Assembly (NCBI GenBank): GCA_029861345.1
Contig: JAOTZM010000006.1
Span: forward strand, 1 to 32,783
DNA: 32,783 nt
Direction: 5' to 3'
Source of the DNA: Candidatus Nitrosopumilus sp.
GTDB taxonomy: Archaea > Thermoproteota > Nitrososphaeria > Nitrososphaerales > Nitrosopumilaceae
The notes below the pieces were generated by a model. That model saw only the letters and a list, made by a program, of their open reading frames with translations, was not told the origin of the DNA and ran no database searches. A program made the position numbers and the translations under genes. How positions within the stretch are numbered: position 1 is the first letter of the stretch; every line of letters starts with the position of its first letter. Below, in pieces: positions 6,298 to 22,575 of the stretch.

Positions 6298-7323
6298 TTA
6301 TTTAAATGCTGAGTCGTCTCCAGATGTGAAAGCATCCCAAGGGAAAAATTCCTTTTTCTGCCATCTTTCCCATCTTGAAATGTCTTCTTCAACCATGATT
6401 TTGATTAATTTCTTAAATTTAGTTTTAGGTTTCCAACCCAATTTCTTTTCTGCTTTAGAATAATCTCCTTTTAGATGCTGAACATCATTGGGTCTTTGAT
6501 TCTCTTTTGATATGGATATGCACTTTGAAGAAATTCCTGCAATGTTGCAAGCTTCTATAACAAAATCTTTAACTGAATGAGTATCATTTGTGGCAAGAAC
6601 AAAATCATCAGGTTTTGGTTGTTGTATCATCTTTCTCATCCCTTCTACGTATTCTGGTGCATATCCCCAGTCTCGTTTGGCCATCAAATTTCCCAGCTTT
6701 AAGTTTTTACTAATCCCAAGTGAAATCTTTGCTACACCATTTGATATTTTCCTAGTAACAAATTCCATTCCTCTTAGGGGCGATTCATGGTTAAACAAAA
6801 TCCCACTTACTGCAAACATTCCATAAGCTTGTCTGTACATGTTTACCGTCCAATGACTATACAATTTTGCAATAGCATATGGACTTGCAGGCTCAAAAGG
6901 AGTTTTTTCATTTTTTACAATTGATTTCTGATTTCCATACATTTCTGATGATGATGCCTGATAAAATTTTATTTTATCATCAAATTTTTTTATTTCATCA
7001 AGCATTCTTATAGTTCCAACTGCTGTAACATTGGCCGTGTATAACGGTTGATCAAAAGATGCTCCTACAAAACTTTGAGCTGCAAGATGATAAATTTCTT
7101 TTGGCTGTGACTTTTGTAGTGCACCTGATATTGAAGCAGAATCTAGCATATCAGCAGGAACGAGATTTATCTTGTGAAAAATATCTAGATAATGTAATCT
7201 CCAAAAATTTGGAGTCGATAATCTTCTGTATGTGCCAAATACATTATATCCTTTATTTATGAGAAATTTAGCTAGGTATGCTCCATCTTGGCCTAAAACT
7301 CCTGTAATTAATGCAGTTTTAAT
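6298..7323 (-). CDS. gmd: GDP-mannose 4,6-dehydratase, apparently starting at a non-standard ATT codon or frameshifted at its start
   Basis: Converts GDP-D-mannose to GDP-4-keto-6-deoxymannose, the precursor of GDP-fucose, GDP-rhamnose and relatives. The frame includes the full extended-SDR fold: KTALITGVLGQDGAYLAKFL, then HLAAQSFVGASF, SSSEMYG, SPYAIAKLYSHW, FNHESPLRG and MAKRDWGYAPEYVEGM. From the ATT at 7321-7323 the catalytic residues would be Ser125, Glu127, Tyr149 and Lys153, and the length (341 aa) matches the family. The first ATG in frame (7147-7149) is codon 59, after the cofactor loop, and no ATG, GTG or TTG lies upstream of it in frame before the TGA at 7330-7332. Either ATT initiates, or one base has been gained or lost relative to the GTG at 7331-7333, which reads out of frame by one. 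It faces an SDR gene across a short shared promoter region. Confidence 0.85.
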   Translation of the reverse strand: MKTALITGVLGQDGAYLAKFLINKGYNVFGTYRRLSTPNFWRLHYLDIFHKINLVPADMLDSASISGALQKSQPKEIYHLAAQSFVGASFDQPLYTANVTAVGTIRMLDEIKKFDDKIKFYQASSSEMYGNQKSIVKNEKTPFEPASPYAIAKLYSHWTVNMYRQAYGMFAVSGILFNHESPLRGMEFVTRKISNGVAKISLGISKNLKLGNLMAKRDWGYAPEYVEGMRKMIQQPKPDDFVLATNDTHSVKDFVIEACNIAGISSKCISISKENQRPNDVQHLKGDYSKAEKKLGWKPKTKFKKLIKIMVEEDISRWERWQKKEFFPWDAFTSGDDSAFK

Positions 7324-7357
7324 ATAAAATCACCGTGTGGTAGGTTACTTGGATAGG

Positions 7358-7365
7358 TTTTAAAA
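7358..7365. promoter_or_regulatory. Palindromic TATA-like box shared by two divergent genes
   Basis: The perfect palindrome TTTTAAAA sits between the dehydratase and the plus-strand SDR gene. Its centre is about 31 bases from the ATG at 7393 and about 38 bases from the ATT at 7323. With transcription starting some 26 bases away, leaders would be about 5 and 12 bases. A symmetric box could drive both directions; two overlapping weaker boxes are an alternative. Confidence 0.4.
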
Positions 7366-7392
7366 GTTATGAATACATCTTGATAGTTTGAA

Positions 7393-8298
7393 ATGAAACA
7401 AAATAAAAAAACTATCTTGGTTACAGGTTCTAATGGTTTTATTGGATCACATCTTTTGAAAACATTATTAAAAAAATACAAGGTGATAGGCGTAAATCAC
7501 ACACAAGATACAAAAACTAAGAATTATTCTCCCTTGAGAAAAAACATTGTAAAATTATCTGTCGATGAAATCTCAGAAAAATTAGGAGGTGTTATTCATT
7601 TGGCTGCTATTACTGATGTAGACCTATGTGACAAAAACCCAAAAAAATGTTTTTTGACCAATATAATGGGAACTCAAAAAGCGCTTGAAATTGCCAGAAA
7701 AAATAACTGTAAATTTGTTTATATTAGTACAAATCATGTTTATGGTAAACCCAAAAAGCTCCCCATAAGTGAAAATCATCCAAGAAATCCAAATTCAATT
7801 TATGCAACCAGTAAATTAGCTGCTGAAATTTGTTGTGAAGGTTATTCAAAATCATATGACATGGATATTGATATTGTAAGATTATTCTCAGTATATGGTC
7901 CAAAAAGTCCTCCTCATTTAGTGACTTCAAAAATCATTACACAACTACAAAAAAAAAATTTAATTTTAGGTAATGTGAGCTCTCAAAGAGATTTTATTTA
8001 CATATCAGATGTAATAAATGCAATCAAAATTGTTTTTGAAAAATCATCTGGTTTTAATGTATATAACATTGGAACAGGTAAATGTTATTCTATATTGAAT
8101 ATTTGTAATTTATTAAAAAATTTATCCAAAAGTGATGTTCCAGTTAGAACACTGACATCAAAAATTAGAAGAAATGATGTAAAAAAAATACTGTCAAATA
8201 ATACAAAAATTAAAAAACTTGGATGGGAACCACAAGTAAATTTAGAATTAGGTTTAAAAATGACACTTGATTGGTACAATTCGCAAAAAACTTCTTAG
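7393..8298 (+). CDS. SDR-family nucleotide-sugar reductase/epimerase, possibly GDP-6-deoxyhexose reductase
   Basis: This 301-residue extended SDR protein has an NAD(P) loop ILVTGSNGFIGSHLL (residues 8-22), HLAAITDVDLC, a Ser/Thr active-site strand YISTNHVYGKP and the YxxxK motif SIYATSKLAAE. Substrate-side motifs are RLFSVYGP, SQRDFIYISDV and YNIGTGK. It pairs head to head with GDP-mannose 4,6-dehydratase, so a GDP-4-keto-6-deoxymannose reductase (Rmd-like) or epimerase-reductase role is the most economical guess. The sequence itself only shows a generic nucleotide-sugar SDR. It would act in the cytoplasm. The ATG at 7393 is about 31 bases from the TTTTAAAA box, so a nearly leaderless mRNA is expected. 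Confidence 0.8.
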   Translation: MKQNKKTILVTGSNGFIGSHLLKTLLKKYKVIGVNHTQDTKTKNYSPLRKNIVKLSVDEISEKLGGVIHLAAITDVDLCDKNPKKCFLTNIMGTQKALEIARKNNCKFVYISTNHVYGKPKKLPISENHPRNPNSIYATSKLAAEICCEGYSKSYDMDIDIVRLFSVYGPKSPPHLVTSKIITQLQKKNLILGNVSSQRDFIYISDVINAIKIVFEKSSGFNVYNIGTGKCYSILNICNLLKNLSKSDVPVRTLTSKIRRNDVKKILSNNTKIKKLGWEPQVNLELGLKMTLDWYNSQKTS

Positions 8299-8336
8299 TT
8301 ACTTTTATTTCAATTATGATGGACTCAAATTTTAGT

Positions 8337-10748
8337 CTAGATGTTGATGATATTTTTAATTCGTTCTAAAATTTCATTTCCTGTTTTTAAGTAACTTAAC
8401 TGCTTTTCTACATTAATACGTGCATTGATTCCAATTTTTTTTGCTTCTTCAGAATTTTCAAAAACATACCTCATCAATGAAGAAGCATGTTGTAAATCTG
8501 GTTCTGCCCAAATACTTCCCTTTCTGTATGCGCCGTAATCTCTATCTAATTTTTCTAGTTTATACTTAACTGGGAGGCTGTTATTTACATTCATAAAATC
8601 TGTATTTCCACCATAAGATGTTGCTATAACTGGTTTTTTTGCATACATAGCTTCTGCTATGGTAAACCCATGTCCTTCGGAACGATGTAATGAAACATAA
8701 CAATCAGAACTAGCTAACAAAGAATAAACTTCATCTCTGTTCATATGTTCATCAAAAAGAATAATATTTTTCCTTCGACATGCTTGCTGTAATTTTTTGT
8801 TATCTGATGGTGATTTTGAACCATTAATGGATTTGATAACTAGAACTGCATTTTCTTCTTCACTAAAAGTATTTTTGAAAGCTTCAATCACACCTAATGG
8901 ATTTTTTCTCTCAAACACACTAAGAAAATCAAATATGAATAAAAAAACAAAATCATCTTCTTTTAAATCAAATTTTAATCGATTTTCAATAAATTTTAAT
9001 TCGTTAATTTCAATTGGACAAGTTATTTTTATTACTGGAACTGGTGAGAATTTTGCTATGGAATTTGCAATGAAATTACTTGCAACCCATATCTCATCAT
9101 AATACTTGAAACTAGTATTCCATTCCTTTGGAAAATCAGCTAGCTCCCAAAACCATATTCCTATATTGTATTTATTTTCAAAATATTCAGGCCCAACTTT
9201 CTTATAAAATAATTCTGATTGATCAGCATTAACTACTATTAGATTAATTGGATTAGGATTGGATTCTTCAAAATCATCAAATGTTTTATCCTCATTCCTA
9301 TGTAGCGGTGAATCTATATTGTTTAGAACAAATGGAATGCCAACATCTTTAATTGCAGTAGCATAACTTCTTCCTGCTTCAGCAATCCCAAATTCTCCCT
9401 TTAAATAGCCAGAAACATTAATTGCAATTTTATTGAGATTTAATTTATGTATGTTTTTTTCAATTAATTTTCTTCTAATTGTTCCATCAACTTCTGATTG
9501 GTTAATTCTATTTTGATCTGTTTCTGACAAAATATTTGATGGTAAGAATATTCTATCAAAGTCATAATCTTTTTTTAAAGTTTGTTCAATCCATCGAACA
9601 TAAGATTTTCTATCTTTTCCAAATAAATCTTGGAATGTATCCTGCAAATCTTTTCTTTCTTTGTATAATTCGTACCATAATCTGGTAATTGTGGGAGTTT
9701 CTTTATCCACATTTTCATTTAAAAAATTTAAGAAAGAATTTGTATCTGATGTTGAGAAAGGATTTTCAAAATTTTCTCCATCATCTAGTGATTTAGCATA
9801 TATTTTTCTAGCTAATTTTGGAATTTTTATACCATTATCAAAATAATCAAATTTACATTTCCAATTTTTAATTTCTAAATACCCATTTTCAACCAACGAA
9901 TCTCGATATAATTCAAAAAGTGGCCTTACAGATTCAATATTTCTTAGAGTAAATCTATTTTGATGCTTTGAAATACTTTCCATTTTTTCTGGAGAAAATC
10001 CACTAAAATGAAGAAAATACGCTGGTTTATTGTTGACATTAATCGTATCTTTGTTTGAAATTTCCACATTTCTTTGTTGAAGATTCCAATATGCTATATT
10101 GTAACCCGGATGTCTAATAACGTAAACATCGTCAAAAATTGAAGGAACAAGATCAATCCATTTTTGGTCTGTAAATAGGCCTTTTTCTATATTACTAAAG
10201 CCATGTTCCATAAGATGAGGAATCCACCAATCTAAAAATTTTGAACTAGTTTTGTTATGTGATAATGCTATAAATCCTAAATTGTAACTTCCTGATCTTA
10301 GTATGTCCATTTCTGATGGATGCTTATCATCTGTTATTGGACTAGTTAGGTGAGGTGTAAGCACAATTGATTTTTTATCTAATAAATCCCATAAATTTTC
10401 AAGACTATTTGTAATCATGATATCTGGATCAAAATAGGCCAATTTTTTTAAATTATATTTCTCAAAGAGATATTTTAAGAAATTTGCCTTTGCTCCAGTA
10501 TTTTGCTCTAAAATGTCATATTTGAAACAAAATGATTCTAAATTTTTAATTCCTATTTCATCAATTTTCACCACAATAAATTTTTCTTTTTTTGGATCAA
10601 ATTTTTTATCTATTGTGTCAACCAATAAAACATATACCTTACCATTTGGATTCTTTTTAAGAAAAGACTCTGTTAGAACTCTAGCATGAGCCAAGTAATT
10701 TTTAGAAATTATCGTACATATTGTAATTTCAGAATTCATTTCTTTCAA
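8337..10748 (-). CDS. Two-domain glycosyltransferase (GT8-like plus GT4-like fusion)
   Basis: This 803-residue protein appears to carry two catalytic units. The first (about 1-270) is GT-A/GT8-like: ITICTIISKNYLAHARVL, a metal-binding YFDPDIMI (Asp107 and Asp109), GSYNLGFIALS and PGYNIAYWNL. A helical linker (about 300-420) follows. The C-terminal part (about 440-803) is GT-B/GT4-like: GYLKGEFGIAEAGRSY, GIWFWELADFP, VFLFIFDFLSVFERKNPLGV and the EX7E-type site EGHGFTIAEAM followed by KPVIATSYGGNTDFM. It would add two different sugars in sequence, or the same linkage repeatedly, at the cytoplasmic membrane face. It starts 6 bases after the coiled-coil gene upstream, so the two are probably co-translated and may work together. 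There is no signal peptide or membrane segment. Confidence 0.85.
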   Translation of the reverse strand: MKEMNSEITICTIISKNYLAHARVLTESFLKKNPNGKVYVLLVDTIDKKFDPKKEKFIVVKIDEIGIKNLESFCFKYDILEQNTGAKANFLKYLFEKYNLKKLAYFDPDIMITNSLENLWDLLDKKSIVLTPHLTSPITDDKHPSEMDILRSGSYNLGFIALSHNKTSSKFLDWWIPHLMEHGFSNIEKGLFTDQKWIDLVPSIFDDVYVIRHPGYNIAYWNLQQRNVEISNKDTINVNNKPAYFLHFSGFSPEKMESISKHQNRFTLRNIESVRPLFELYRDSLVENGYLEIKNWKCKFDYFDNGIKIPKLARKIYAKSLDDGENFENPFSTSDTNSFLNFLNENVDKETPTITRLWYELYKERKDLQDTFQDLFGKDRKSYVRWIEQTLKKDYDFDRIFLPSNILSETDQNRINQSEVDGTIRRKLIEKNIHKLNLNKIAINVSGYLKGEFGIAEAGRSYATAIKDVGIPFVLNNIDSPLHRNEDKTFDDFEESNPNPINLIVVNADQSELFYKKVGPEYFENKYNIGIWFWELADFPKEWNTSFKYYDEIWVASNFIANSIAKFSPVPVIKITCPIEINELKFIENRLKFDLKEDDFVFLFIFDFLSVFERKNPLGVIEAFKNTFSEEENAVLVIKSINGSKSPSDNKKLQQACRRKNIILFDEHMNRDEVYSLLASSDCYVSLHRSEGHGFTIAEAMYAKKPVIATSYGGNTDFMNVNNSLPVKYKLEKLDRDYGAYRKGSIWAEPDLQHASSLMRYVFENSEEAKKIGINARINVEKQLSYLKTGNEILERIKNIINI

Positions 10749-10754
10749 ATGTAA

Positions 10755-11483
10755 CTAAATCAATTCCTTATCGTCTATAATTATAAATCCATCATTTTGA
10801 AGTTCTGCTTTTGTAGAAGGTCTAATTTTTAGTCGATTTTTATGATTATCTTGTACTTTTTTAATTAATTCTATTTTATCTTTTTCCGATATTGACAAAT
10901 TTGAATTTGAGGAATAAAATGTATTTATTTTAAATTCTTTTTTTACAATTTTAGTTTTAACTGTTAAAATATATTTTCTCAGACCTTCTTGTCGAATTAA
11001 AATAATACTAGCTATTACAATTTTTTTAAATTCTCCTCTTTTACTATTATTTGGGAATATAGAATCAATTATTTTTGAAATACTTTTTGAAAATTTAAAA
11101 ATTATACTATTGTGAATTTGTGCAAGTTCTTCTCTTATTTCAATTAATTCACAATTTTTACTATTGAGATCTTTATCTTTCTGTCTAACTAACTGATCCA
11201 AGCTTGTAATTTCATCTTCTTTCTGTCTAACTAACTGATCCAAGCTTGTAATTTCATCTTCTTTCTGTCTAACTAACTGATCCAAGCTTGTAATCTCCTT
11301 ATTTTTTCTCTTAATTTTTTGATGAAATTTTTGAATATCTTCATCAAGAATCTCTAACTCCGAATCTCTTTTTGTAATTTCTTCTGTTAGTTCATTAATC
11401 CTATTGATTTTCTCAAAAATGATTTTATCTAGATTAAATAAATCTAGATTATCCTGAGGTTTTTGCATTAAATTAAACTTCAT
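10755..11483 (-). CDS. Coiled-coil protein with tandem 14-residue repeats, next to the fusion glycosyltransferase
   Basis: In this 242-residue protein, residues about 12-118 are a continuous predicted coiled coil (heptads rich in E, K, L, I). It includes three near-identical 14-residue units (ITSLDQLVRQKEDE), encoded by the DNA repeat at 11177-11302. The rest (about 119-242) contains IHNSIIFKFSKSISKIIDSI, FKKIVIASIILIRQEGLRKY and an acidic tail ending DDKELI. Coiled coil followed by a NSxxFKxxKxI segment resembles the spacer regions found inside many large bacterial glycosyltransferases. This may therefore be a detached scaffold or chain-length ruler for the enzyme encoded just downstream. 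No catalytic motif is visible, and no confident membrane helix, although IVIASIILI is hydrophobic. Confidence 0.75.
   Translation of the reverse strand: MKFNLMQKPQDNLDLFNLDKIIFEKINRINELTEEITKRDSELEILDEDIQKFHQKIKRKNKEITSLDQLVRQKEDEITSLDQLVRQKEDEITSLDQLVRQKDKDLNSKNCELIEIREELAQIHNSIIFKFSKSISKIIDSIFPNNSKRGEFKKIVIASIILIRQEGLRKYILTVKTKIVKKEFKINTFYSSNSNLSISEKDKIELIKKVQDNHKNRLKIRPSTKAELQNDGFIIIDDKELI
11177..11302. repeat. Three tandem 42-bp repeats inside the coiled-coil gene
   Basis: Copies one (11177-11218) and two (11219-11260) are identical at every base. Copy three (11261-11302) matches until about 11293 and then diverges. Forty-two bases is 14 codons, exactly two heptads, so copy-number change would lengthen or shorten the coiled coil in register. 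Confidence 0.9.
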
Positions 11484-11619
11484 TATCCTAAATTTACATT
11501 TTTAGCATTAAAATAAAATACTCAATTGAAGGGAATACAGAAAATGTAAGAATATTTACAAAAATAATGCAAACTAGAGAAAAAGCATTAATCATTTTAC
11601 CATTATAGAATCTGTTTTT

Positions 11620-13002
11620 TTATGTTATACTTAATTTTTCCATATGATAAATAACACGTTCTGATTCTTGTATATTGAAAGATTCGATTATTTTAAAATT
11701 ATTTGAGAATTCTTTTTCAAAATTTTCCTGATTATAATTAGGAAAAATATCTTCTCTATTCAACAAAAGTCGTTTTACTTGGGAATCTGTTTTTGGAATA
11801 AACTCAATAATTAAATGATGGCAACTTTTTTCAAAAAACTCTGAAACTTTGTTTAAAGGAAGATTATTCGATATTGTTAGATGATGGATCAATGCCAAAG
11901 CCATGACAGTATCAACTGGGCCTCTCTCTATTAATGAATGTCGTTCTATATTATTCCAGCCAATACTTGGACTCGGATTAGTAAGATCAAGTAAAAGCGG
12001 TAAAATTTTTGTTTCGTTCTTTTTAATACATTCAAGAAAATTTTTTTCAACTGCAGATGGATCAACATCAAATGCAATTGTTTCAATTTTCTTATCACTT
12101 GCAATACGGCTAAATTCTCCCATGTTTGCACCGAGATCCCATAGAAACTTTGGTTTTATTTTTTCAATTATTGTTGAAACGATCTGTTTTTTATGTTCAA
12201 ATCCTTTATGTGAATAATTTATGTCATCATAGTAATTTGCCCATTCTGTTCCTTCTGGAGTCCAGTTTAATTTTTTAATTCCAGAAATCAAACTTTCTAT
12301 TATTCCTGTCATCGATCGACGACTGACTTTCTTTTCTTTTACTTTGGCATTCTTATTTTCATAATGCTTTTGACTTTTAGCATGGAAGTGAATATGGGAA
12401 ATTAACGAGAATGAAGATAAAGCACGAGTTGGAAGTAATTCATCTGCAAGATCAAGAGGAATACCATCTATGTAAATTCGTAACAGTTGACTTAATCTAA
12501 TGTCTTTTTTACTCATCAATGCCAGAGGTGCAAGAAAATGCTGGCAAAACTGTTTATATGCACTCCAAGGCTGGCCTTCATGATATTTTTCAAAAGACAG
12601 AGTATCAATTAAGACGGGCTTACAATTTTTAAATTGTATATTATATGCACTAGAATCTTTTAAAGTCATGTTAAAATTCATTGCAATTTTTTGTATTTCT
12701 AGAGTACATAGCGCTGCTTGTTTTAATTGAGTAAAACTCCATTCATAGGGATAGGAAATGAACGGTATCACTTCAGGTTGAATAATTTTATACATTGTTT
12801 TTGGATTGTGAGCCAAGCTATCAGAATCAACATGTGGAATTATTAAATTAGAATTTAGAAGATGATCATAAAGTCCAGATGAAATTAAAAAGTCATATTC
12901 ATCTTTATATGCATTGTTTATTTGCCTGTATAAAACTCCATTATTCCAAAAAAGAAATCCACTTGGATCTCTAAAAGAACTTGGTTGCCTGTAAAGATTC
13001 AT
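11620..13002 (-). CDS. SAM-dependent methyltransferase with kinase-like N-terminal domain
   Basis: The C-terminal half (about residues 245-460) of this 460-residue protein is a class I methyltransferase: WTPEGTEWANYYDD, motif I FLWDLGANMGEFSRIA (SAM loop 289-295), acidic FDVDPSAVE (311-319) and later MALALIHHL and LIIEFIPKTD. The N-terminal half contains SGLYDHLLNSNLIIPH, YKIIQPEVIPFISYPYEW and KDSSAYNIQFKNCKPVLIDT. In this last stretch Asp116, Asn121 and Asp133 are spaced like the catalytic and metal-binding loops of APH/kinase folds. Proteins with this two-part layout occur in surface-polysaccharide loci and presumably methylate a sugar; the kinase-like part may bind rather than phosphorylate. 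It lies 10 bases downstream of the small YLDPGSGS protein gene, suggesting an operon. Confidence 0.8.
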   Translation of the reverse strand: MNLYRQPSSFRDPSGFLFWNNGVLYRQINNAYKDEYDFLISSGLYDHLLNSNLIIPHVDSDSLAHNPKTMYKIIQPEVIPFISYPYEWSFTQLKQAALCTLEIQKIAMNFNMTLKDSSAYNIQFKNCKPVLIDTLSFEKYHEGQPWSAYKQFCQHFLAPLALMSKKDIRLSQLLRIYIDGIPLDLADELLPTRALSSFSLISHIHFHAKSQKHYENKNAKVKEKKVSRRSMTGIIESLISGIKKLNWTPEGTEWANYYDDINYSHKGFEHKKQIVSTIIEKIKPKFLWDLGANMGEFSRIASDKKIETIAFDVDPSAVEKNFLECIKKNETKILPLLLDLTNPSPSIGWNNIERHSLIERGPVDTVMALALIHHLTISNNLPLNKVSEFFEKSCHHLIIEFIPKTDSQVKRLLLNREDIFPNYNQENFEKEFSNNFKIIESFNIQESERVIYHMEKLSIT

Positions 13003-15064: not shown

Positions 15065-16327
15065 CTAATATCCAAGTTCTCTTAATTTTTCACCCATTAT
15101 TTCATTCATAATGTTTTGCTCTTTCTGAGTAAAATTTTCTTTCCATTTACCCGGACTTGCACTTCTAGTTACTTTTCCTGAACCTTTTTTCTCAGAAGGA
15201 ATATTTTCAAAACTATGTTTTTCTACAATTTTTTCCAATTCTTTTTCTGGGATTTCAATCCCGATAAAATCATATATATTTTTTAATTCTTCAAATGTAT
15301 TACTTCGTAAATTTTCATATTTTACTGCATATCGAAGTTCTTTAGAATGCTTTTCATATGCTGATTTTATTATTTCCATAGTATTTACCCAATATGAGGA
15401 TTGTCTAATTATTTCATCAACTTTATTTTTTTCATTCCATGCAGTAAAACCATATCTTTTTGTAAACCACGCATCTTTTTTTAATCCATCAATCCATGAA
15501 TCCACCACATCTCTCCCGTCTCGAATCAGAAAGATCATCTTTGATTGAGGCAAACATCTCAATACAATGTCTGCACCAGTTCCTCCATTAGGCTCTTTTA
15601 TTATAATTGGTGTTTTTGTATCTTGAAATTGACCGTATATTCTACCTAGTATAAGTTTCCTAACAAAGTATTGCCAAATTTTTTTGTACCTTGACGAGAA
15701 AAAATAGTCTGGATCTTTTTCAAATAAATCAATATTTCTTACAATTTTATCTTGTATTTTTGGTTCGTTTATTCCTAAATGAAAACCAATGTATGGTTCA
15801 TTGATTGATAATGTTTTGTATTCTAAGAGTCGTGTTCCTAGCCAAGATGTACCGCCTCTTGGAGATGAAAAAATCCAAACAATATTTTTTTCCAAATCTC
15901 TTTCATCATTTGGAGTAGGACCTATGGGTTTAGGTAAAACAAAATCTTCTGGTAAATAAGAAATTTCATCTTCATTGGTCTCAATAAATCTAATTTCTTC
16001 TAAAGGGGTTAATCTATATCTACAATCTGACTTGATTGGAACCTCTTCATTTATCCTGTAAATTACTTTAACATATTTTATATTCTTTGGAATTGTGAAA
16101 ACTAGTTTGTATGTTTGTTCTTTTCCAGAAAAATCATTTAGCCACTGAATTTTGCGAGATATCTCATTATCCCTTTCATCAAACATTACAATTCCAAAAT
16201 ATGCACAGTATTGTTCGCCAAATATCCCTATAGATCTGATAGAAATTCGATATTTTTTATTTGATTCTACTGTAACTTTATTTGATGAAATAAATTTCTC
16301 ATTTGAAGTTAAACTAATTTCCAACAT
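15065..16327 (-). CDS. PAPS-dependent sulfotransferase with N-terminal beta-sandwich-like domain
   Basis: In this 420-residue protein, the C-terminal part (about 147-420) has the sulfotransferase signatures. The 5'-phosphosulfate loop is SSPRGGTSWLG (154-164), the 3'-phosphate motif is FLIRDGRDVVDSW (266-278), and a late SASPGKWKENF matches the usual G-x-W-K nucleotide-binding end. It should transfer sulfate from PAPS to a hydroxyl on a carbohydrate or other acceptor. No transmembrane segment is seen, so it probably acts in the cytoplasm before export. Residues 1-135 are beta-rich (YRISIRSIGIFGEQYCAYFG, YKLVFTIPKNIKYVKVIYRI) and resemble carbohydrate-binding sandwich domains, perhaps holding the acceptor glycan. 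It lies beside the sulfatase-like gene and the ABC exporter, on the same strand. PAPS-making enzymes are not in the window. Confidence 0.87.
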   Translation of the reverse strand: MLEISLTSNEKFISSNKVTVESNKKYRISIRSIGIFGEQYCAYFGIVMFDERDNEISRKIQWLNDFSGKEQTYKLVFTIPKNIKYVKVIYRINEEVPIKSDCRYRLTPLEEIRFIETNEDEISYLPEDFVLPKPIGPTPNDERDLEKNIVWIFSSPRGGTSWLGTRLLEYKTLSINEPYIGFHLGINEPKIQDKIVRNIDLFEKDPDYFFSSRYKKIWQYFVRKLILGRIYGQFQDTKTPIIIKEPNGGTGADIVLRCLPQSKMIFLIRDGRDVVDSWIDGLKKDAWFTKRYGFTAWNEKNKVDEIIRQSSYWVNTMEIIKSAYEKHSKELRYAVKYENLRSNTFEELKNIYDFIGIEIPEKELEKIVEKHSFENIPSEKKGSGKVTRSASPGKWKENFTQKEQNIMNEIMGEKLRELGY

Positions 16328-16435
16328 GTGTATGAGAATTGATCATCTAACTAGTTAATGAAGTATTTCAATATTAAATTTAAATCCAAAAAACAACCTT
16401 GTTTATGAAATACAATTATTTTTCTAATATTTTAG

Positions 16436-17164
16436 TCAATCCTGGTATTCTTCATAGTATTTTTTTAGAACCTGATCAATATCTCCAACTAAGATAATCT
16501 TGCCTTTATCCATTAGTACAACACGATCTGCTATCTCCAATTGTGGACCTAAATTATGAGTTACTAATAAAATGGTTTTATTTTTTTCTTTAAATGAAAC
16601 AAAAGAATTAAAGCTTTTTTCCTGAAATTTCCTGTCCCCCACTGCCAAGATCTCATCAACAAGAAAGATATCTGGGTTCATTTGTAGTGCTAAAGAAAAT
16701 GCTAATCTTGCACGCATCCCGGTTGAATAATGTTTTAACTTCATTCCAGTAAACTTTTCTAATTCTGCATATTCTATTATGTCATCTGTCTTCTGTAAAA
16801 TTTTGTCTTTTTTTATCCCCATCAATAATCCTGACATCAAAATATTTTCTTTTGAATTAAGCTCTTCATGAAATCCTGTACCTATATGCAATAAAGGAGC
16901 TATGGTACCATCTATTACAATATTTCCTGAATCTGGCGTATATATGCCTGCAATAGTTCGTAGTAAAGTGGTTTTACCACTACCATTTCTTCCAATTATC
17001 GCAATGACTTCGCCTTTTTTAATATCCAATGTTATGTTATCTAATGCCATAATCTTGGTTTTTTGAGATTGAGAAAAAATATTGAAAAGTCTTGATTCTA
17101 GATTTTCACTTTTAAAAGTAAATGACTTTGTAACATTTTCTAATTTTATTGCTATTTCATCCAA
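16436..17164 (-). CDS. ABC transporter ATP-binding protein, polysaccharide export (Wzt/TagH type)
   Basis: This 242-residue ATPase has Walker A GRNGSGKTT (58-66), signature YSTGMRARLAFSLAL, Walker B DIFLVDEILAVGD and the H-loop LLVTHN. The sequence LLHIGTGFHEELNSKENI after the Q-loop is the hallmark of the Wzt/TagH/RfbB branch, which powers export of lipid-linked polysaccharide or teichoic acid through the inner membrane. It ends soon after the ATPase core, so it lacks the C-terminal carbohydrate-recognition domain of O9a-type Wzt. Export should then depend on the carrier lipid or on a separate recognition protein, not on a terminal modification read by Wzt. The start is only two bases after the permease stop, so the two are co-transcribed. 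Confidence 0.92.
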   Translation of the reverse strand: MDEIAIKLENVTKSFTFKSENLESRLFNIFSQSQKTKIMALDNITLDIKKGEVIAIIGRNGSGKTTLLRTIAGIYTPDSGNIVIDGTIAPLLHIGTGFHEELNSKENILMSGLLMGIKKDKILQKTDDIIEYAELEKFTGMKLKHYSTGMRARLAFSLALQMNPDIFLVDEILAVGDRKFQEKSFNSFVSFKEKNKTILLVTHNLGPQLEIADRVVLMDKGKIILVGDIDQVLKKYYEEYQD

Positions 17165-17166
17165 TT

Positions 17167-17961
17167 TTACAACTCCTCCATAATTTTTGATTGATATTTA
17201 TTAAAAATTAAAAATCCAAATAGAAATATTCCTATACAAAATATTGAGACATATGTCCATTCTACTAATGTTGGAATTGTATTAAAGACAACTATGTTGT
17301 GAGTTAATTCTGTTAATTGTCCAATAGGATTAATCGAATGAATTGCAAGTAAAATATTGCCTAACCCTGTATCTTTGATGTCATCGATATACCAAATGAT
17401 CGGTGTGATAAAAAATAAAGCTTGAATGAGAATGCTCCATATCACTTGAATATCTCTAAAATATACATGTAGAATACAAAGTATGTAAGAAATTCCTAAA
17501 ATCAAAATTATTAATAACAATAAAACTACCGGTAGAAAAATAATTGTCCATACTGGAATAAATTGAAAGAAAGGCATCAATCCAAAAAATACTCCTATCT
17601 GAACAACCATTAAAATCGATGTAGCTAGAACAGCTGTTACTGGAAAAAATTCCTTGTTGATATTAATTGATTCAATTATGTTTACATTACTACGTATACT
17701 TGATAATCCCCCAGACGTTCCCCTCGCAAATATATTGTACAATATAATGCCTGTAAGAAGATAGATTCCATAATTCTCTTGTGGACCTTTTGTAATGCTT
17801 GTAAATACTATGTATAGAAAAACAAACGTAAGAGTTGGCTCTAAGGCAGTCCAAACTATACCTAACTTCATACCTTTGAAGCGAAGTTTGATGTTTATTA
17901 TCGCAAAAAAAACTAGTATAGATCTAACCTTCCATAAATTTACTAATGGTAGAAAACTCAA
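17167..17961 (-). CDS. ABC-2 type polysaccharide export permease (Wzm/TagG type)
   Basis: This 264-residue protein has six hydrophobic segments and the ABC-2 family pattern: an amphipathic N-terminus (INIKLRFKGMKLGIVWTALEP, with the conserved LG.xW...P), GIILYNIFARG at the second helix, and YFRDIQVIWSILIQALFFITPIIWY in the middle. The last is the standard coupling and re-entry region of Wzm/TagG permeases. With the ATPase two bases downstream it forms the exporter that flips a completed lipid-linked glycan across the cytoplasmic membrane. The start is the TTG at 17959-17961; the family N-terminus fits, and a TATA-like CTTATATCT at 17992-18000 gives an 8-base leader. Confidence 0.9.
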   Translation of the reverse strand: MSFLPLVNLWKVRSILVFFAIINIKLRFKGMKLGIVWTALEPTLTFVFLYIVFTSITKGPQENYGIYLLTGIILYNIFARGTSGGLSSIRSNVNIIESININKEFFPVTAVLATSILMVVQIGVFFGLMPFFQFIPVWTIIFLPVVLLLLIILILGISYILCILHVYFRDIQVIWSILIQALFFITPIIWYIDDIKDTGLGNILLAIHSINPIGQLTELTHNIVVFNTIPTLVEWTYVSIFCIGIFLFGFLIFNKYQSKIMEEL

Positions 17962-18186
17962 ATTGTTACAGCTCGGTAAAATTATTACTACCTTATATCT
18001 ATTCTTTAGTATTGTTGAAATTTAATTTAATTATCTTGTTCTGAATTTTTTTTGTAAATCTACTGCTATTCCCAAAAACTTACGAGTTAAGAAAGAATGT
18101 CTAAAATTATATTCTTAAAGTTCTAAATTGGTTTCTTGTAATAAACAAATAGTTTAAGATATATTCAATAATTTAAAAATTAAGAT
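17962..18186. promoter_or_regulatory. Divergent promoter region between ABC exporter and dTDP-rhamnose operon
   Basis: These 225 bases hold no gene. On the minus strand, AGATATAAGG (17991-18000) is about 34 bases upstream of the exporter start. On the plus strand, GTTTAAGATA (18152-18161) lies about 30 bases before the ATG at 18187. Both spacings suit leaderless or nearly leaderless transcripts, so exporter and sugar supply fire outward from one region. Confidence 0.4.
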
Positions 18187-18681
18187 ATGCTACCCGGTGT
18201 AAAAATACAAGAACTTACAAAATTTCCTGATGAAAGAGGCTCCTTTACAGAAGTCTTTAGAGAAGATTGGTCAGACTTGGTTGAACCTGAGGATAAAATT
18301 CTCCAAGTAAATGTATCTTATAGTTATCCTGGCATGATACGAGCGTGGCATCGACACGAGAAAGGACAAGTAGATTATTTTATCACCATAAAGGGAACAA
18401 CAAAAATTTGTGCATACGACGATGATAATAATTCATCAACGCGTGGACAACTAGATCAGATTATTTCAAGTGGAGAAAAAATTCAGTGTGTTAGAGTTCC
18501 TGGATTTTACTATCATGGATTCAAGTCTGTTGGATTTGAACCTGCATTGGTAGTTTATTTGACTACACGACTTTATGATTACAAAAATCCTGATGAGGAG
18601 AGAAGACCTTGGAATGATTCTACTATAATTGATCCCAAAACAGGGAAACCTTTTGACTGGAATGCAATTCCCTATAAATAA
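18187..18681 (+). CDS. rfbC: dTDP-4-dehydrorhamnose 3,5-epimerase-like protein
   Basis: This 164-residue cupin is slightly shorter than typical RmlC (about 180 aa). Motifs are FPDERGSFTEVF, the active-site histidine in GMIRAWHRHEKGQVDYF (His55), PGFYYHGFKS and the C-terminal signature PDEERRPWND. It converts dTDP-4-keto-6-deoxyglucose to the 4-keto-L-rhamnose form by epimerising C3 and C5 in the cytoplasm. It is first in the operon rfbC-rfbB-rfbD-rfbA, whose stepwise order makes dTDP-L-rhamnose from glucose-1-P; rfbB begins two bases after its stop. Divergence from bacterial RmlC (RAWHRH rather than RGLHYQ) leaves room for epimerising only one centre, giving a related 6-deoxyhexose. Confidence 0.85.
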   Translation: MLPGVKIQELTKFPDERGSFTEVFREDWSDLVEPEDKILQVNVSYSYPGMIRAWHRHEKGQVDYFITIKGTTKICAYDDDNNSSTRGQLDQIISSGEKIQCVRVPGFYYHGFKSVGFEPALVVYLTTRLYDYKNPDEERRPWNDSTIIDPKTGKPFDWNAIPYK

Positions 18682-18683
18682 TC

Positions 18684-19676
18684 ATGAATTTTCTAGTTTG
18701 CGGTGGGGCCGGATTTATTGGTAGTGCTTTTATTAGACATTTACAAAACCATAACTCAAAAATAATAAATCTTGATCTGCTAACAATTGGTTCTAATCCT
18801 GAAAATCTAAAGAATTTAGAAAATAAAAATTACCAATTTATCAAAGATGATATTAGAAATGGAGACACCCTCAATCATCTCGTAAGAGAGGTAGATGTTG
18901 TCGTAAATTTTGCAGCTGAATCTCATGTTGATAGAAGTATAGCAAATCCAAAACCATTCATTGAAACAAACATACTTGGTACATACTCTATACTTGAAGC
19001 CATACGAAAACATGAAAAAATGTTCATCCATGTATCAACTGATGAAATCTATGGTGATGCTGAAGAGCAGTCATCATTTGATGAAGATTCTCAAATAAAT
19101 CCAAGTAATCCTTACGCTGCCACCAAAGCTGCAGCTGATCACTTGGTTGCATCATATTACAGAACATATGGAATAAAATGCATTACAACAAGATGTACTA
19201 ACAACTTTGGTCCATATCAATTTCCAGAAAAACTAATCCCTAAAACTATAATTCGTTCAATAAAAAACCTCAAAGTTCCATTATATGGTAATGGACAGCA
19301 AATTAGAAGTTGGATTCATGTATATGATCACGTTCACGCAATTGAATCACTTGTTTCAAAAGGAAAATCTGGTGAAGTTTATAATATTACTGCCTACAAC
19401 GAAATCAACAATAAAATCATAGTTGAAAAAATTTTGGATATTCTTGAAAAATCATATGACATGATCGAATATGTAAAAGATAGACCAGGACACGATAAAA
19501 GATATTCCATTGATTCCTCAAAAATTCAAAAAGAGATTGGCTGGAAACCTCAATACCAATTTGATGATGCATTAGAAGAAACTGTAAACTGGTATTGTGA
19601 AAATAAAGAATGGTGGGAACCTTTGATTGATGATAAAACACTTCATCCTCAGCCTTGGACTTTGAACTGGAAATGA
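18684..19676 (+). CDS. rfbB: dTDP-glucose 4,6-dehydratase
   Basis: This 330-residue extended SDR enzyme has the family length. It has the NAD loop CGGAGFIGSAFIRHL (6-20), VVNFAAESHVDRSI, the catalytic trio Thr119-Asp120-Glu121 in HVSTDEIYGD, and Tyr144/Lys148 in NPYAATKAAADHL. Also present are RCTNNFGPYQFPEKLIP, GNGQQIRSWIHVYDH and the C-terminal RPGHDKRYSID typical of RmlB. It oxidises dTDP-glucose and removes water to give dTDP-4-keto-6-deoxyglucose in the cytoplasm, the second step of the dTDP-rhamnose route. Two bases separate it from rfbC, and its TGA overlaps the ATG of rfbD (ATGA), indicating translational coupling. Confidence 0.95.
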   Translation: MNFLVCGGAGFIGSAFIRHLQNHNSKIINLDLLTIGSNPENLKNLENKNYQFIKDDIRNGDTLNHLVREVDVVVNFAAESHVDRSIANPKPFIETNILGTYSILEAIRKHEKMFIHVSTDEIYGDAEEQSSFDEDSQINPSNPYAATKAAADHLVASYYRTYGIKCITTRCTNNFGPYQFPEKLIPKTIIRSIKNLKVPLYGNGQQIRSWIHVYDHVHAIESLVSKGKSGEVYNITAYNEINNKIIVEKILDILEKSYDMIEYVKDRPGHDKRYSIDSSKIQKEIGWKPQYQFDDALEETVNWYCENKEWWEPLIDDKTLHPQPWTLNWK

Positions 19677-20554
19677 AATTCCTTGTTACAGGTTCTGCAG
19701 GACTAATTGGTTCCCAAGTAACAAAAGATCTTACACTAGAAAATCATAAAGTTTATTCCTGTTATCATGATAACAAACCCATTCATGGAAATCCATTATA
19801 CTTTGATCTAACTAATCAAAACAAAATAATTAGAACAATTCAGGAAATTAAACCTGATTCAATAATACATCTCGCAGCTATGACAAATGTTGATCAATGT
19901 GAGACTCAACAAAAACTTGCTTATCTCATAAATACAAAATCTACTGAAATTTTGGCAAAGCAAGCTGCAAAATTAGATGCGTTCTTTGTTTATGTTTCAA
20001 CTGATTACATTTTTGATGGAAGAAGAGGAAAATATAGTGAAGATGATTCCACAAACCCGCTTGGGTATTATGGTAAATCAAAATTTAAAGCAGAAGAAGC
20101 ACTAAATAAATTGGCTTCAAGTTGGTGTATTGCAAGAACCAGTACTCCATTTGGGATTCACCTCAACAAAACAAGTTTCCCAATATGGATAAAAGAAAAT
20201 TTAGAAGCAAAAAAAGAAATCCCTGTACTGGTAGATCAATTTACATCTCCAACATATGTCCCCAACCTTTCAAAAATGCTTATAGAAATTGCAAAAAGAC
20301 AGATTTCGGGAATCCTTCACACAGCTGGTTCTAGTAGAATATCTAGATATGAACTGGCAAAACTAGTATCAGAAAAACTACATCTTGATAAAAAATTACT
20401 AAAACCAACTCAAATTAATGAGATGACTTGGAATGCACAGAGACCAAGAGATTCTTCTCTTGATGTCTCAAAGGCAACTGAGATCCTAAATGAAAAACCA
20501 CAAACAATACAATATAGCCTTAATCTACTAATAGATGAAATCTTAAAGAAATGA
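19673..20554 (+). CDS. rfbD: dTDP-4-dehydrorhamnose reductase
   Basis: This is a 293-residue protein from the ATG at 19673. The frame is open further to a TTG at 19655, but the ATG gives the standard start immediately before the Rossmann loop MKFLVTGSAGLIGSQV, and the ATGA overlap with rfbB supports it. Motifs are IIHLAAMTNVDQCE, YVSTDYIFDGRRGKYSEDD, NPLGYYGKSK (Tyr133/Lys137 pair) and PTYVPNLSKM, followed by GILHTAGSSRISRYELA, all typical of RmlD. It reduces the 4-keto sugar to dTDP-L-rhamnose using NAD(P)H. It is third in the operon, 35 bases before rfbA. It could reduce a close relative if rfbC has altered stereochemistry. Confidence 0.92.
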   Translation: MKFLVTGSAGLIGSQVTKDLTLENHKVYSCYHDNKPIHGNPLYFDLTNQNKIIRTIQEIKPDSIIHLAAMTNVDQCETQQKLAYLINTKSTEILAKQAAKLDAFFVYVSTDYIFDGRRGKYSEDDSTNPLGYYGKSKFKAEEALNKLASSWCIARTSTPFGIHLNKTSFPIWIKENLEAKKEIPVLVDQFTSPTYVPNLSKMLIEIAKRQISGILHTAGSSRISRYELAKLVSEKLHLDKKLLKPTQINEMTWNAQRPRDSSLDVSKATEILNEKPQTIQYSLNLLIDEILKK

Positions 20555-20589
20555 TTAATTTTATACTGGGATGACTGATTGAAAAAGAA

Positions 20590-21657
20590 TTGAAAGGCAT
20601 CATACTTCATGGTGGTCATGGAACAAGACTGAGACCTCTAACACATACAGGACCAAAACAACTACTTCCAATTGCAAACAAACCAATGTCTCAGTATGCA
20701 CTAGAGGATCTAAAGACAGCAGGAATTACAGATATTGGAATAATAATTGGTGATGTTCATCCGGACAAAGTAAAAGAGTATTATGGAGATGGCCAAAAAT
20801 TTGGTGTTACTATTACCTATATCTATCAAGATCAACCCAAAGGGATTTCACATGCAATATCTCTTTGCAAGGATTTTGTGGGTAATGACAAATTCGTTGT
20901 GTATCTTGGAGATAATGTATTAAGAAAAAACCTAGTTGATTATGTAAAAAATTTTCAAAACTCTGAATCTGATGCCCTAATTTTATTATGTAAAGTTGAT
21001 GATCCTCAAAGATTTGGAATTGCAGAGTTGGGTAAAACCCCAGGAAAGATAAAAAAAATTATAGAAAAACCTAAAATTCCAATATCTGATCTAGCTGTAA
21101 TTGGAATTTACTTTTTAACTCCAAAAATTTTTGATATTATAAATCAATTAAAACCCTCTTGGCGGGGTGAATTAGAAATAACTGATGCATTACAGCTATT
21201 AATGGACAAAAAAAATAAAATTGAATATGATGTGGTAACAGGTTGGTGGAAAGACACTGGAACCCCTGAAGATATTATTCATGCAAATAAACTAGTTCTT
21301 GATTCTATTGGAACTGAAAATCAATTTCTAATAGATGCTGATTCAGCAATTAAAGATAATATTGTAATTGGAAACGGTACTGAAATCTCAAATGACTCTT
21401 TTGTTGTGGGCCCTGCAATTATTGGAAAAAACTGTAAAATAGGTCCAGCAGTAAAAATAGGACCCTATGTTAGTATTGGAGAAAATTGTATTTTGAAAAA
21501 CTGCACTGTTGAAGATTCGATAATAATGAATGACTGTACAATTAATACTACAACTAATTTATCATGTAGCATTATTGCACATGGTTCTGAAATTATTGAT
21601 AGTAAAACAAAGAAAAATCAATTCTTGCTAGGTGAAAGGTCTAATATTAGAATCTAA
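20590..21657 (+). CDS. rfbA: Glucose-1-phosphate thymidylyltransferase, archaeal long form
   Basis: This 355-residue nucleotidyltransferase starts KGIILHGGHGTRLRPLTHTG and continues with PKQLLPIANKPM (catalytic and triphosphate-binding loop), YLGDNVLRKN (metal site) and RFGIAELGKTPGKIKKIIEKP. WRGELEITDALQ and GWWKDTGTPEDI follow; they are typical of RmlA. From about 240 on there is a left-handed beta-helix of hexapeptide repeats (IIGKNCKIGPAVKIGPYVSI), absent from the short bacterial RmlA and normal for the archaeal long form. It joins dTTP and glucose-1-P to give dTDP-glucose, the entry step of the pathway. The start is a TTG at 20590; no in-frame ATG lies at the 5' end, and the family begins at this residue. 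Confidence 0.92.
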   Translation: MKGIILHGGHGTRLRPLTHTGPKQLLPIANKPMSQYALEDLKTAGITDIGIIIGDVHPDKVKEYYGDGQKFGVTITYIYQDQPKGISHAISLCKDFVGNDKFVVYLGDNVLRKNLVDYVKNFQNSESDALILLCKVDDPQRFGIAELGKTPGKIKKIIEKPKIPISDLAVIGIYFLTPKIFDIINQLKPSWRGELEITDALQLLMDKKNKIEYDVVTGWWKDTGTPEDIIHANKLVLDSIGTENQFLIDADSAIKDNIVIGNGTEISNDSFVVGPAIIGKNCKIGPAVKIGPYVSIGENCILKNCTVEDSIIMNDCTINTTTNLSCSIIAHGSEIIDSKTKKNQFLLGERSNIRI

Positions 21658-21702
21658 ATTAGAAATACTTTACATAAAGGCACTTTAACAAAAATTGTAA
21701 TA

Positions 21703-22575
21703 TTGAATCTAGCCTGTATTCCAGCATATAATGAAGAATTAACCATACAAGATGTAGTAAAAAAATCACTATTCCATGTAGATAAGGTAATAGTATGTGA
21801 TGATGGCTCTACTGATAACACTGCAAAACTAGCCAAAGAGGCAGGAGCTATAGTAATTTCTCAAAAAAATCAAGGATATGGCGCTGCAATTACTACTCTT
21901 TTTGAACAGGCAAGAAAAGAAGATGCTCAGATAATGATTACTATAGATGGAGATGGACAACATAATCCAGACCAAATTCCATTATTGATTGATACTATCA
22001 TTACCAATAATGTTGATGTTGTAATTGGCTCAAGATTTTTAGATGATAAGACAAAAGCTCCTGGATATAGAAAAACTGGAATCAAAATTATCACATCTGC
22101 CTCAAACTATGGAACAAACTTCAAGACAACTGATTCTCAGTCGGGATTTAGAGCATATTCAAAAGATGCTATTGATGCAATACATCCAACCGAACAAGGA
22201 ATGTCAGTTTCAACTGAAATTTTACAAAAAATATCCAGGAAGGGATTATCCGTAGCCGAAGTCCCAATAACTGTATCCTATGAAGGTGATACTTCAGAAG
22301 AGCATTCAGTATCTCATGGTGTATCTGTTTTAGTTAATACTCTAAAGTATGTTTCAATTAAACATCCACTTCAATTCTATGGCATTCCTGGAATTGTATT
22401 AATCATTGTAGGTATTGTTATTGGTGGAATTTTTCTTGATGCGTATTTGAATCAGCAAATAATATTTTATGGTTCACTACTTGCTTCAGTTGTAATATTT
22501 TTACTAGGTACAATTCTAATGGTTACTTCAATTATATTATTTTCAATGGTAAATTTAATTCGAGATAGAAATTAA
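21703..22575 (+). CDS. GT2 polyprenyl-phosphate hexose synthase-like protein with two C-terminal membrane helices
   Basis: This 290-residue DPM1/GtrB-like GT2 enzyme has IPAYNEELTIQDVV, VIVCDDGSTDNTAKLAKE, GYGAAITTLFEQA, the metal site TIDGDGQHNPDQI, VIGSRFLDD and TTDSQSGFRAYSKDAI. Two hydrophobic helices at the C-terminus (about 230-250 and 258-280) anchor it in the membrane. Such enzymes load glucose or mannose from a nucleotide donor onto dolichyl or polyprenyl phosphate for later transfer outside the membrane by GT-C enzymes. The GT-C-like protein at 1777-3054 is a candidate partner. It begins with TTG at 21703, 45 bases after rfbA, and is probably the last gene of that operon. Its 3' end overlaps the facing epimerase gene by 21 bases. 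Confidence 0.87.
   Translation: MNLACIPAYNEELTIQDVVKKSLFHVDKVIVCDDGSTDNTAKLAKEAGAIVISQKNQGYGAAITTLFEQARKEDAQIMITIDGDGQHNPDQIPLLIDTIITNNVDVVIGSRFLDDKTKAPGYRKTGIKIITSASNYGTNFKTTDSQSGFRAYSKDAIDAIHPTEQGMSVSTEILQKISRKGLSVAEVPITVSYEGDTSEEHSVSHGVSVLVNTLKYVSIKHPLQFYGIPGIVLIIVGIVIGGIFLDAYLNQQIIFYGSLLASVVIFLLGTILMVTSIILFSMVNLIRDRN

What the first reader, a model, noticed from the sequence alone, without database searches (positions are those of the whole stretch)
6298..22575. Surface-glycan system with two deoxysugar supplies beside the S-layer gene
dTDP-L-rhamnose (rfbC/B/D/A) and a GDP-6-deoxyhexose (gmd plus SDR) are supplied within 15 kb of five glycosyltransferase domains, methyl and sulfate modifying enzymes, an exporter and the S-layer gene. 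I found no oligosaccharyltransferase, ligase or Wzx/Wzy gene. The product is therefore either a free or lipid-anchored sulfated rhamnan-like polymer, or is attached to protein by an enzyme outside the window. I am not aware of a described system of this composition in ammonia-oxidising archaea.
Basis: inference. Interest (0 to 1): 0.7.

Follow-up and report, generated by a model that had tools for sequence, protein, structure and literature searches.

The report
Swappable archaeal sugar-coat gene cassette
Next to the gene for its protein shell, this ammonia-oxidising archaeon carries a swappable set of genes that appears to build and export a sulfated sugar coat, and in this and many related archaea the set includes a repeat-built coiled-coil that resembles the "ruler" bacteria use to set sugar-chain length.

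Summary
The genes reported are real. They form one allele of a replaceable polysaccharide cassette (about 4264-21657) set between PGI/PMI (3201-4211) and the conserved trio GT2-SDR-S-layer. A congener (G204) with about 91%/86% identical flanks has an unrelated core. Another (G109) lacks the cassette and carries a GT2a::GT2 hybrid gene at the join. Export is by Wzm/Wzt; the genome has no recognisable Wzx or Wzy_C, but has AglB and an initiating transferase elsewhere. RmlA/B/D pass family cut-offs; RmlC is short and divergent. The "methyltransferase" is a NoeA-family kinase-methyltransferase of bacterial descent in a conserved operon with a Thr-nucleophile AlkP protein, not a sulfatase. Beside it a coiled-coil gene holds a perfect 42-bp (14-aa) tandem array. 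Nine such arrays, differing in sequence, lie within 15 kb of Wzm (0.48 Mb), none in 1.41 Mb elsewhere (p=4e-6). Most are fused to methyltransferases, resembling WbdD-type terminators with coiled-coil rulers. Likely product: a capped, sulfated, deoxyhexose-containing exported polymer. Against strict WbdD membership: Wzt lacks the carbohydrate-binding domain, and kinase-methyltransferase and coil are separate genes. The S-layer has only 4 sequons, so it is an unlikely main acceptor. Anchor, sugar identity and ruler function are unproven.

The parts
3201..4211 (+). PGI/PMI (phosphoglucose/phosphomannose isomerase): left border of the cassette
   Evidence: Pfam bact-PGI_C; glycan markers lie within 100 kb of it in 13/13 closed genomes; directly upstream of the S-layer gene in cassette-free genomes
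4264..5154 (+). GT2a glycosyltransferase; left end of cassette, counterpart of the N-terminus of the G109 hybrid scar
   Evidence: Pfam PF00535
5197..6195 (+). GT2b glycosyltransferase; conserved with G204 up to 6193
   Evidence: Pfam PF00535
6298..7323 (-). Gmd, GDP-mannose 4,6-dehydratase, probable ATT start at 7323-7321
   Evidence: TIGR01472 full length; sequence
7393..8298 (+). SDR divergent to Gmd, probable GDP-4-keto-6-deoxyhexose reductase
   Evidence: divergent Gmd/SDR pair recurs in relatives
8337..10748 (-). two-domain glycosyltransferase GT8+GT4, candidate polymerase, 6 bp downstream of the coiled-coil gene
   Evidence: Pfam; ortholog pair in G083
10755..11483 (-). coiled-coil protein, candidate molecular ruler; C-terminal domain shared with MTase-coil proteins of G083 and G146
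11176..11294 (-). perfect 42-bp tandem array, 2.8 copies (14 aa = two heptads) in the coiled-coil gene
   Evidence: TRF
11620..13002 (-). NoeA-family kinase-methyltransferase, candidate chain-capping enzyme
   Evidence: PMC9758233
13013..13225 (-). 70-aa YLDPGSGS membrane protein, conserved partner of the kinase-methyltransferase
13282..14832 (-). 5-TM AlkP-superfamily protein with invariant Thr227 (phospho-transferase/hydrolase type)
15065..16327 (-). sulfotransferase
   Evidence: Pfam PF00685/PF13469; sulfotransferases recur in other alleles
16436..17164 (-). Wzt, ABC-transporter ATPase, no C-terminal carbohydrate-binding domain (242 aa)
17167..17961 (-). Wzm, ABC-transporter permease
   Evidence: NF050109; PDB O-antigen/teichoic-acid permeases
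18187..18681 (+). RfbC/RmlC, short divergent 3,5-epimerase
18684..19676 (+). RfbB dTDP-glucose 4,6-dehydratase
   Evidence: over TIGR01181 cut-off
19655..20554 (+). RfbD/RmlD dTDP-4-dehydrorhamnose reductase
   Evidence: over TIGR01214 cut-off
20590..21657 (+). RfbA/RmlA glucose-1-phosphate thymidylyltransferase; right end of cassette
   Evidence: over TIGR01208 cut-off
21703..22575 (+). GT2 resembling polyprenyl-phosphate-sugar synthases (AglJ/PpgS-like); conserved right border
22555..23568 (-). GalE-like SDR, divergent to the S-layer gene, conserved across genera
23694..29534 (+). S-layer protein (long form), homolog of N. maritimus PDB 8c8k; only 4 N-X-S/T sequons

Best explanation
The region is one allele of a serotype-like, ABC-transporter-dependent surface-polysaccharide locus of Nitrosopumilaceae, inserted between PGI/PMI and the GT2-SDR-S-layer block. 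Inferred mechanism: dTDP-L-rhamnose (Rml) and a GDP-6-deoxyhexose (Gmd plus SDR) feed glycosyltransferases (GT2a, GT2b, GT8-GT4) that build a polymer on a polyprenyl carrier in the cytoplasm, primed by a transferase encoded elsewhere. A sulfotransferase decorates it. The kinase-methyltransferase caps the growing end (phosphate and/or methyl), with the neighbouring coiled-coil protein holding cap enzyme and polymerase apart as a ruler. Wzm/Wzt then exports the chain. Shown by sequence: gene families, cassette borders, allele swap, deletion scar, association of perfect heptad-repeat arrays with Wzm loci and their fusion to methyltransferases. Inferred: polymer, capping, ruler role, anchoring.
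For: Wzm/Wzt identity; no Wzx or Wzy_C in the 95%-complete genome; initiating transferase present. Wzm-rfbC and Wzm-gmd co-occurrence and linkage to PGI/PMI. Same framework, different core in G204, with alignment ending at 6193 and resuming at 16399/18147. G109 hybrid GT2 scar. Kinase fold plus methyltransferase fold with WbdD as top PDB hit; catalytic residues invariant in 26 homologs. Perfect 42-bp coil arrays 9 in / 0 out of Wzm neighbourhoods, p=4.5e-6; coils fused to FkbM or class I methyltransferases in G083, G146, G104, G128, G203, G079. The coiled-coil/GT8-GT4 pair is conserved in G083, where the coil is fused to an FkbM methyltransferase. In bacteria a terminator on a coiled-coil ruler marks ABC-dependent O-polysaccharide assembly (PMC11231755, PMC5082667).
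Against: Wzt has no carbohydrate-binding domain, which all terminated bacterial O-polysaccharide transporters described in PMC11231755 have. In the window the kinase-methyltransferase and the coil are separate genes, and the NoeA family elsewhere travels with an AlkP protein rather than with coils (PMC9758233). No anchor ligase identified. 11 of 23 Wzm stretches show no heptad array, perfect or decayed (some are short contigs). No expression or chemical data.
Confidence: 0.6

Rival explanations
1. N-glycosylation locus: the cassette makes a short lipid-linked oligosaccharide that AglB transfers to S-layer asparagines, as in Haloferax (sulfated hexose and rhamnose glycan).
For: AglB in the genome; AglJ-like GT2 and SDR next to the S-layer gene; 17 N-glycans on N. 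maritimus S-layer (PMC11153153); Haloferax Agl11-14 (PMC4022621).
Against: Only 4 sequons in 1946 aa against 17.6 expected from composition (Poisson p=1e-4), the fewest among the homologs compared; Np. piranensis S-layer showed no N-glycan (PMC12153357); polymer-type exporter and coiled-coil/methyltransferase genes; AglB lies outside the locus.
Confidence: 0.2
2. S-layer O-glycan by an ABC-transporter route, as in Geobacillus slg loci (own knowledge: rml genes, Wzm/Wzt, methylating WsaE, ligase WsaB): a long capped chain is exported and linked to S-layer protein.
For: rml + Wzm/Wzt + methyltransferase beside the S-layer gene; S-layer gene linked to the cassette in several genera.
Against: No WaaL/Wzy_C-type ligase in the genome; in 6 of 13 closed genomes the glycan markers lie more than 340 kb from the S-layer gene but near PGI/PMI.
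Confidence: 0.12
3. The NoeA-type operon (YLDPGSGS protein, kinase-methyltransferase, AlkP protein) is an independent decoration module that modifies another secreted or lipid molecule; the coil gene belongs only with GT8-GT4 and the chain is not capped by the kinase-methyltransferase. (Compatible with the cassette reading; rivals only the capping step.)
For: Same operon in some 25 bacterial and archaeal loci; related NoeA/NoeB affect host-specific nodulation (PMC9758233); Wzt lacks the domain that reads a cap.
Against: In the window the kinase-methyltransferase sits directly upstream of the coil gene, co-oriented, where G083 and G146 have a methyltransferase fused to the coil.
Confidence: 0.3
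4. The cassette mosaic is an assembly or binning artefact.
For: The window genome is a 192-contig draft; G204 and G095 are drafts too.
Against: Framework genes on both sides lie on the same contig here and in single-contig genomes G003, G146, G059; G083 carries related pieces in the same order.
Confidence: 0.05

Closest known systems
ABC-transporter-dependent O-polysaccharide loci (E. coli O9a / Klebsiella O3 WbdD; Klebsiella O7 ORF6)
   Same: Wzm/Wzt exporter, multi-domain glycosyltransferase next to a coiled-coil gene, kinase plus methyltransferase, coil length plausible as ruler
   Different: Archaeal, no outer membrane or lipid A; Wzt lacks the carbohydrate-binding domain; kinase-methyltransferase order is reversed and not fused to the coil; coil built of perfect 42-bp repeats
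NoeA family (Lani_1194; Sinorhizobium nodL-noeA-noeB)
   Same: Kinase then class I methyltransferase, conserved AlkP-fold neighbour
   Different: Here inside an archaeal polysaccharide cassette beside a coiled-coil gene; gene order differs from the usual bacterial operon
Haloferax volcanii Agl11-14 N-glycosylation pathway
   Same: dTDP-rhamnose genes including a short RmlC; sulfated, rhamnose-containing surface glycan
   Different: No AglB in the locus; Wzm/Wzt exporter; sequon-poor S-layer
Replacement glycosylation islands of marine microbes, including Ca. Nitrosomarinus catalina (PMC8430335)
   Same: Variable polysaccharide island in a marine AOA
   Different: Here borders, exporter, allele swap, deletion scar and repeat-coil feature are resolved
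Geobacillus S-layer glycan (slg) loci (own knowledge)
   Same: rml genes, Wzm/Wzt, methylating terminator, S-layer association
   Different: No ligase found; archaeal S-layer; sulfotransferase and Gmd present

Membership tests
ABC-transporter (Wzm/Wzt)-dependent polysaccharide locus | Wzm permease and Wzt ATPase adjacent | tested here: met
   16436-17961, 2 bp apart
ABC-transporter (Wzm/Wzt)-dependent polysaccharide locus | polyprenyl-phosphate sugar-1-phosphate transferase to start the chain | tested here: met
   PF00953 elsewhere in the genome
ABC-transporter (Wzm/Wzt)-dependent polysaccharide locus | no Wzx/Wzy needed | tested here: met
   none in window; PF01943 and PF04932 absent from the genome
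ABC-transporter (Wzm/Wzt)-dependent polysaccharide locus | product is a long exported chain | not testable with these tools
   needs chemistry
WbdD-type terminator | kinase and methyltransferase in one protein | tested here: met
   (domain order reversed)
WbdD-type terminator | coiled coil fused to the terminator | tested here: not met
   separate gene 136 bp downstream; fused in relatives G083, G146, G104, G128, G203, but to other methyltransferases
WbdD-type terminator | Wzt carbohydrate-binding domain that reads the cap | tested here: not met
   Wzt 242 aa, ABC domain only
NoeA family kinase-methyltransferase | kinase plus MTase architecture with conserved D..N..D and SAM motif, AlkP neighbour | tested here: met
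   K115 D116 N121 D133, D289xGxNxG invariant; operon. NoeA itself was not aligned here; assignment rests on the architecture, motifs and neighbours described in PMC9758233
dTDP-L-rhamnose pathway | RmlA, RmlB, RmlD over curated cut-offs | tested here: met
dTDP-L-rhamnose pathway | RmlC over curated cut-off | tested here: inconclusive
   55 of 156 bits in TIGR01221; over Pfam cut-off; Haloferax Agl13 is also short (471-bp gene, PMC4022621)
GDP-6-deoxyhexose pathway | full-length Gmd and a partner reductase | tested here: inconclusive
   Gmd full length but below the NCBIfam cut-off, as in all 151 genomes searched; SDR not assigned
AglB N-glycosylation gene cluster | AglB in or next to the cluster | tested here: not met
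   AglB on another contig
Formylglycine sulfatase (13282-14832) | C/SxPxR motif | tested here: not met
   invariant Thr227 instead

The most novel reading that the evidence does not exclude
Archaea have their own terminator-plus-ruler system for surface polysaccharide, in which the ruler is a coiled coil made of perfect 42-bp (two-heptad) repeats that expand and contract in frame, so that chain length evolves, perhaps varies within a population, while the whole cassette is swapped beside the S-layer gene, possibly to escape viruses.
Probability: 0.35. Interest if true: 0.82.

Novelty: new variant of a known kind. Interest (0 to 1): 0.68.

Why it matters
Ammonia-oxidising archaea are among the commonest cells in the sea, and what covers them decides how viruses and ammonium reach them. 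Published work is at odds: N. maritimus S-layer carries 17 N-glycans while Np. piranensis S-layer showed none. A defined, swappable export cassette with recognisable borders gives a concrete candidate for a second surface glycan. The repeat-built coils would let chain-length control be tested in archaea, and the locus could serve to type AOA strains much as O- or K-typing does in bacteria.

Tried and rejected
Phmmer of the kinase-methyltransferase and of the AlkP protein against the PDB gave nothing significant; profile and fold approaches were needed. The plain reading 'sulfatase' was rejected (no C/SxPxR). The truncated Gmd ORF was first taken as a possible pseudogene; the upstream frame is open and the HMM covers it, so this was rejected. 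The full-length kinase-methyltransferase fold search hit only the methyltransferase half, so WbdD as top hit is not evidence for the kinase; the kinase domain was folded and searched alone. The idea that the coil gene belongs with the NoeA-type operon was dropped: the window coil protein found no match in the bacterial loci. Long-form S-layer proteins go with glycan markers (7 of 8, Fisher p=0.003), but this is weak and left as a remark. One paper id recalled from memory turned out to be an unrelated paper. Paper searches for a described Wzm/Wzt glycan locus in Nitrosopumilus found none in the held library, which is not proof of absence.
Full report
OBSERVATION. The window is contig C89 of a 1.74-Mb, 95%-complete genome. 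Its family is taken as Nitrosopumilaceae: one searched family member, G115, is the contig of Nitrosarchaeum sp. WB-IL-22. RmlA, RmlB and RmlD exceed curated cut-offs. RmlC is a short, divergent member. Gmd is complete if it starts at an ATT (7323-7321) preceded by GGTGA. Nine genes from Wzm (17961) down to GT8-GT4 (8337) run on the minus strand, with gaps of 2 bp (Wzm/Wzt), 10 bp (small protein/kinase-methyltransferase) and 6 bp (coiled coil/GT8-GT4).

BORDERS. In 13 closed genomes with glycan markers, 23 of 24 markers (Wzm, gmd, rfbC) lie within 100 kb of PGI/PMI; 14 of 24 lie within 100 kb of the S-layer gene. In several genera PGI/PMI sits directly upstream of the S-layer gene with nothing between (G082, G076, G004, G069, G050). 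In the window the glycan genes lie between PGI/PMI (ends 4211) and GT2 (21703)-SDR-S-layer. The same frame holds 20-60 kb of glycan genes in G003, G146, G059 and G044.

ALLELE SWAP. G204, a congener with 88-93% identical proteins at the left border and 86-91% at the Rml/GT2 border, aligns with the window at 90.9% DNA identity over 1152-6193. There is no alignment over 6194-16398. Wzt/Wzm align at 70.7%, and 18147-24059 at 85.8%. Its core holds other GTs, a Pfam-recognised sulfotransferase and two proteins with sulfotransferase-like motifs that Pfam does not call. The outer part of the S-layer gene is also diverged (67-71%) between stretches of about 85%. So the core and part of the S-layer gene are the variable pieces.

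DELETION SCAR. G109, a 99%-complete congener, has no cassette at this place. Its single GT2 between PGI/PMI and the SDR is a hybrid: residues 1-56 match GT2a (38/56 identical; right-border GT2 15/41), and the remaining 235 match the right-border GT2 (190/235; GT2a 17/72). This is what recombination between the two GT2 genes flanking the cassette would leave. No other genome among 95 congeners showed it, and its 5' end has a stop and no ATG, so it may be inactive. It is one case.

EXPORT AND LINKAGE. Wzm/Wzt resemble galactan-type O-antigen exporters. The genome has an initiating transferase and AglB, but no Wzx or Wzy_C ligase/polymerase. Wzm occurs in 23 of 151 family genomes and goes with rfbC (19/23) and gmd (13/23). 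The S-layer protein has 4 sequons where composition predicts 17.6; the homologs compared have 7-20. N. maritimus has 17 glycans per S-layer monomer (PMC11153153) while Np. piranensis showed none (PMC12153357). This speaks against the S-layer as main acceptor here but does not exclude it.

KINASE-METHYLTRANSFERASE. Protein 11620-13002 has no Pfam hit. A scan of one genome for each of about 85,000 species found 28 related loci, 36-64% identical over the full length, mostly bacterial. In most of them it stands in one operon: small YLDPGSGS protein, kinase-methyltransferase, 5-TM AlkP protein. The window and Nitrosarchaeum copies are sisters (99/98 support) among bacterial sequences, which suggests transfer. 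Kinase (K115, D116, N121, D133) and SAM-site residues are invariant in 26 sequences. The kinase part alone matches protein kinases among its 50 best PDB hits; the whole model hits WbdD first through its methyltransferase domain. The family corresponds to the described NoeA/Lani_1194 family, of unproven function (PMC9758233). The AlkP partner has an invariant Thr227 with D427/H428, which points to phospho-group chemistry.

REPEAT COILS. The gene after the kinase-methyltransferase encodes a coiled coil with a 42-bp perfect repeat (2.8 copies). The related coil in G083 is fused to an FkbM methyltransferase and has its own perfect 42-bp array of different sequence. A scan of the fetched DNA gave nine perfect 42-bp arrays, all within 15 kb of Wzm (0.48 Mb), and none in 1.41 Mb elsewhere, including 0.8 Mb of control regions from four cassette-bearing genomes (binomial p=4.5e-6). 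A tenth, in G003, is a perfect 33-bp (11-aa) array in a GT4 protein; two more are decayed. Units are 99-100% identical within an array but mostly near chance between genomes, so arrays are renewed often. Five arrays end at contig ends, as expected where assembly fails on repeats, so true copy numbers may be larger. Fused domains: FkbM methyltransferase (G146, G083), class I methyltransferase (G104, G128, G203, G079; also G130 and G025 with decayed arrays), and a sulfotransferase-like motif without Pfam support (G123). In bacteria, a terminator on a coiled-coil ruler is the marker of ABC-dependent O-polysaccharide assembly, and coil length sets chain length (PMC11231755, PMC5082667).

VERDICT. 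A swappable, Wzm/Wzt-exported surface-polysaccharide cassette is the best reading (0.6). That the coil is a ruler and the kinase-methyltransferase a terminator is plausible but fails two defining tests of the WbdD system: no Wzt carbohydrate-binding domain, and no fusion. So it is claimed as working like that system, not as a member of it. Sugar identity, anchor and function remain to be measured. Limits: most relatives are draft genomes; the linkage and co-occurrence tests count related genomes as independent; the regions searched for arrays were chosen partly around Wzm, which is why the array test is scaled by bases inside and outside.

Noticed in passing
7321-7323: gmd appears to start at ATT with GGTGA upstream; no ATG/GTG/TTG is available in frame before the conserved N-terminus.
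   Followed up: partly
23694-29534: S-layer gene: 4 sequons against 17.6 expected, and strong divergence of part of the gene from the close relative G204 while flanks stay at about 85%.
   Followed up: partly
13013-14832: Widespread three-gene operon (YLDPGSGS small membrane protein, NoeA-type kinase-methyltransferase, AlkP protein) in many phyla; function unknown.
   Followed up: partly
L036 (G095:C21): A draft genome assigned to another genus holds the right half of this cassette at 79-95% nucleotide identity, highest at Wzm (99% protein); recent exchange or mis-binning.
   Followed up: partly
L038:11158-11301 (G003): Perfect 33-bp (11-aa, hendecad-like) array in a GT4 protein of another cassette.
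   Followed up: partly
15065-16327: Sulfotransferase has a roughly 140-aa N-terminal extension without Pfam hit, also present in the G083 homolog; possibly a sugar-binding beta-domain.
   Followed up: no
425-496: 16-bp tandem repeat (AAAAATTGTTTTGAAC, 4.5 copies, 98%) between two GlnK/PII-like genes.
   Followed up: no
G030, G046, G086, G092, G098, G032 (single-contig genomes): Where PGI/PMI and the S-layer gene are apart, they are about 350-395 kb apart each time, as if one old rearrangement separates two chromosome types.
   Followed up: no
L039:2488-3473 (G003): Four 246-bp repeats (94%) in a 2018-aa protein within the G003 cassette.
   Followed up: no
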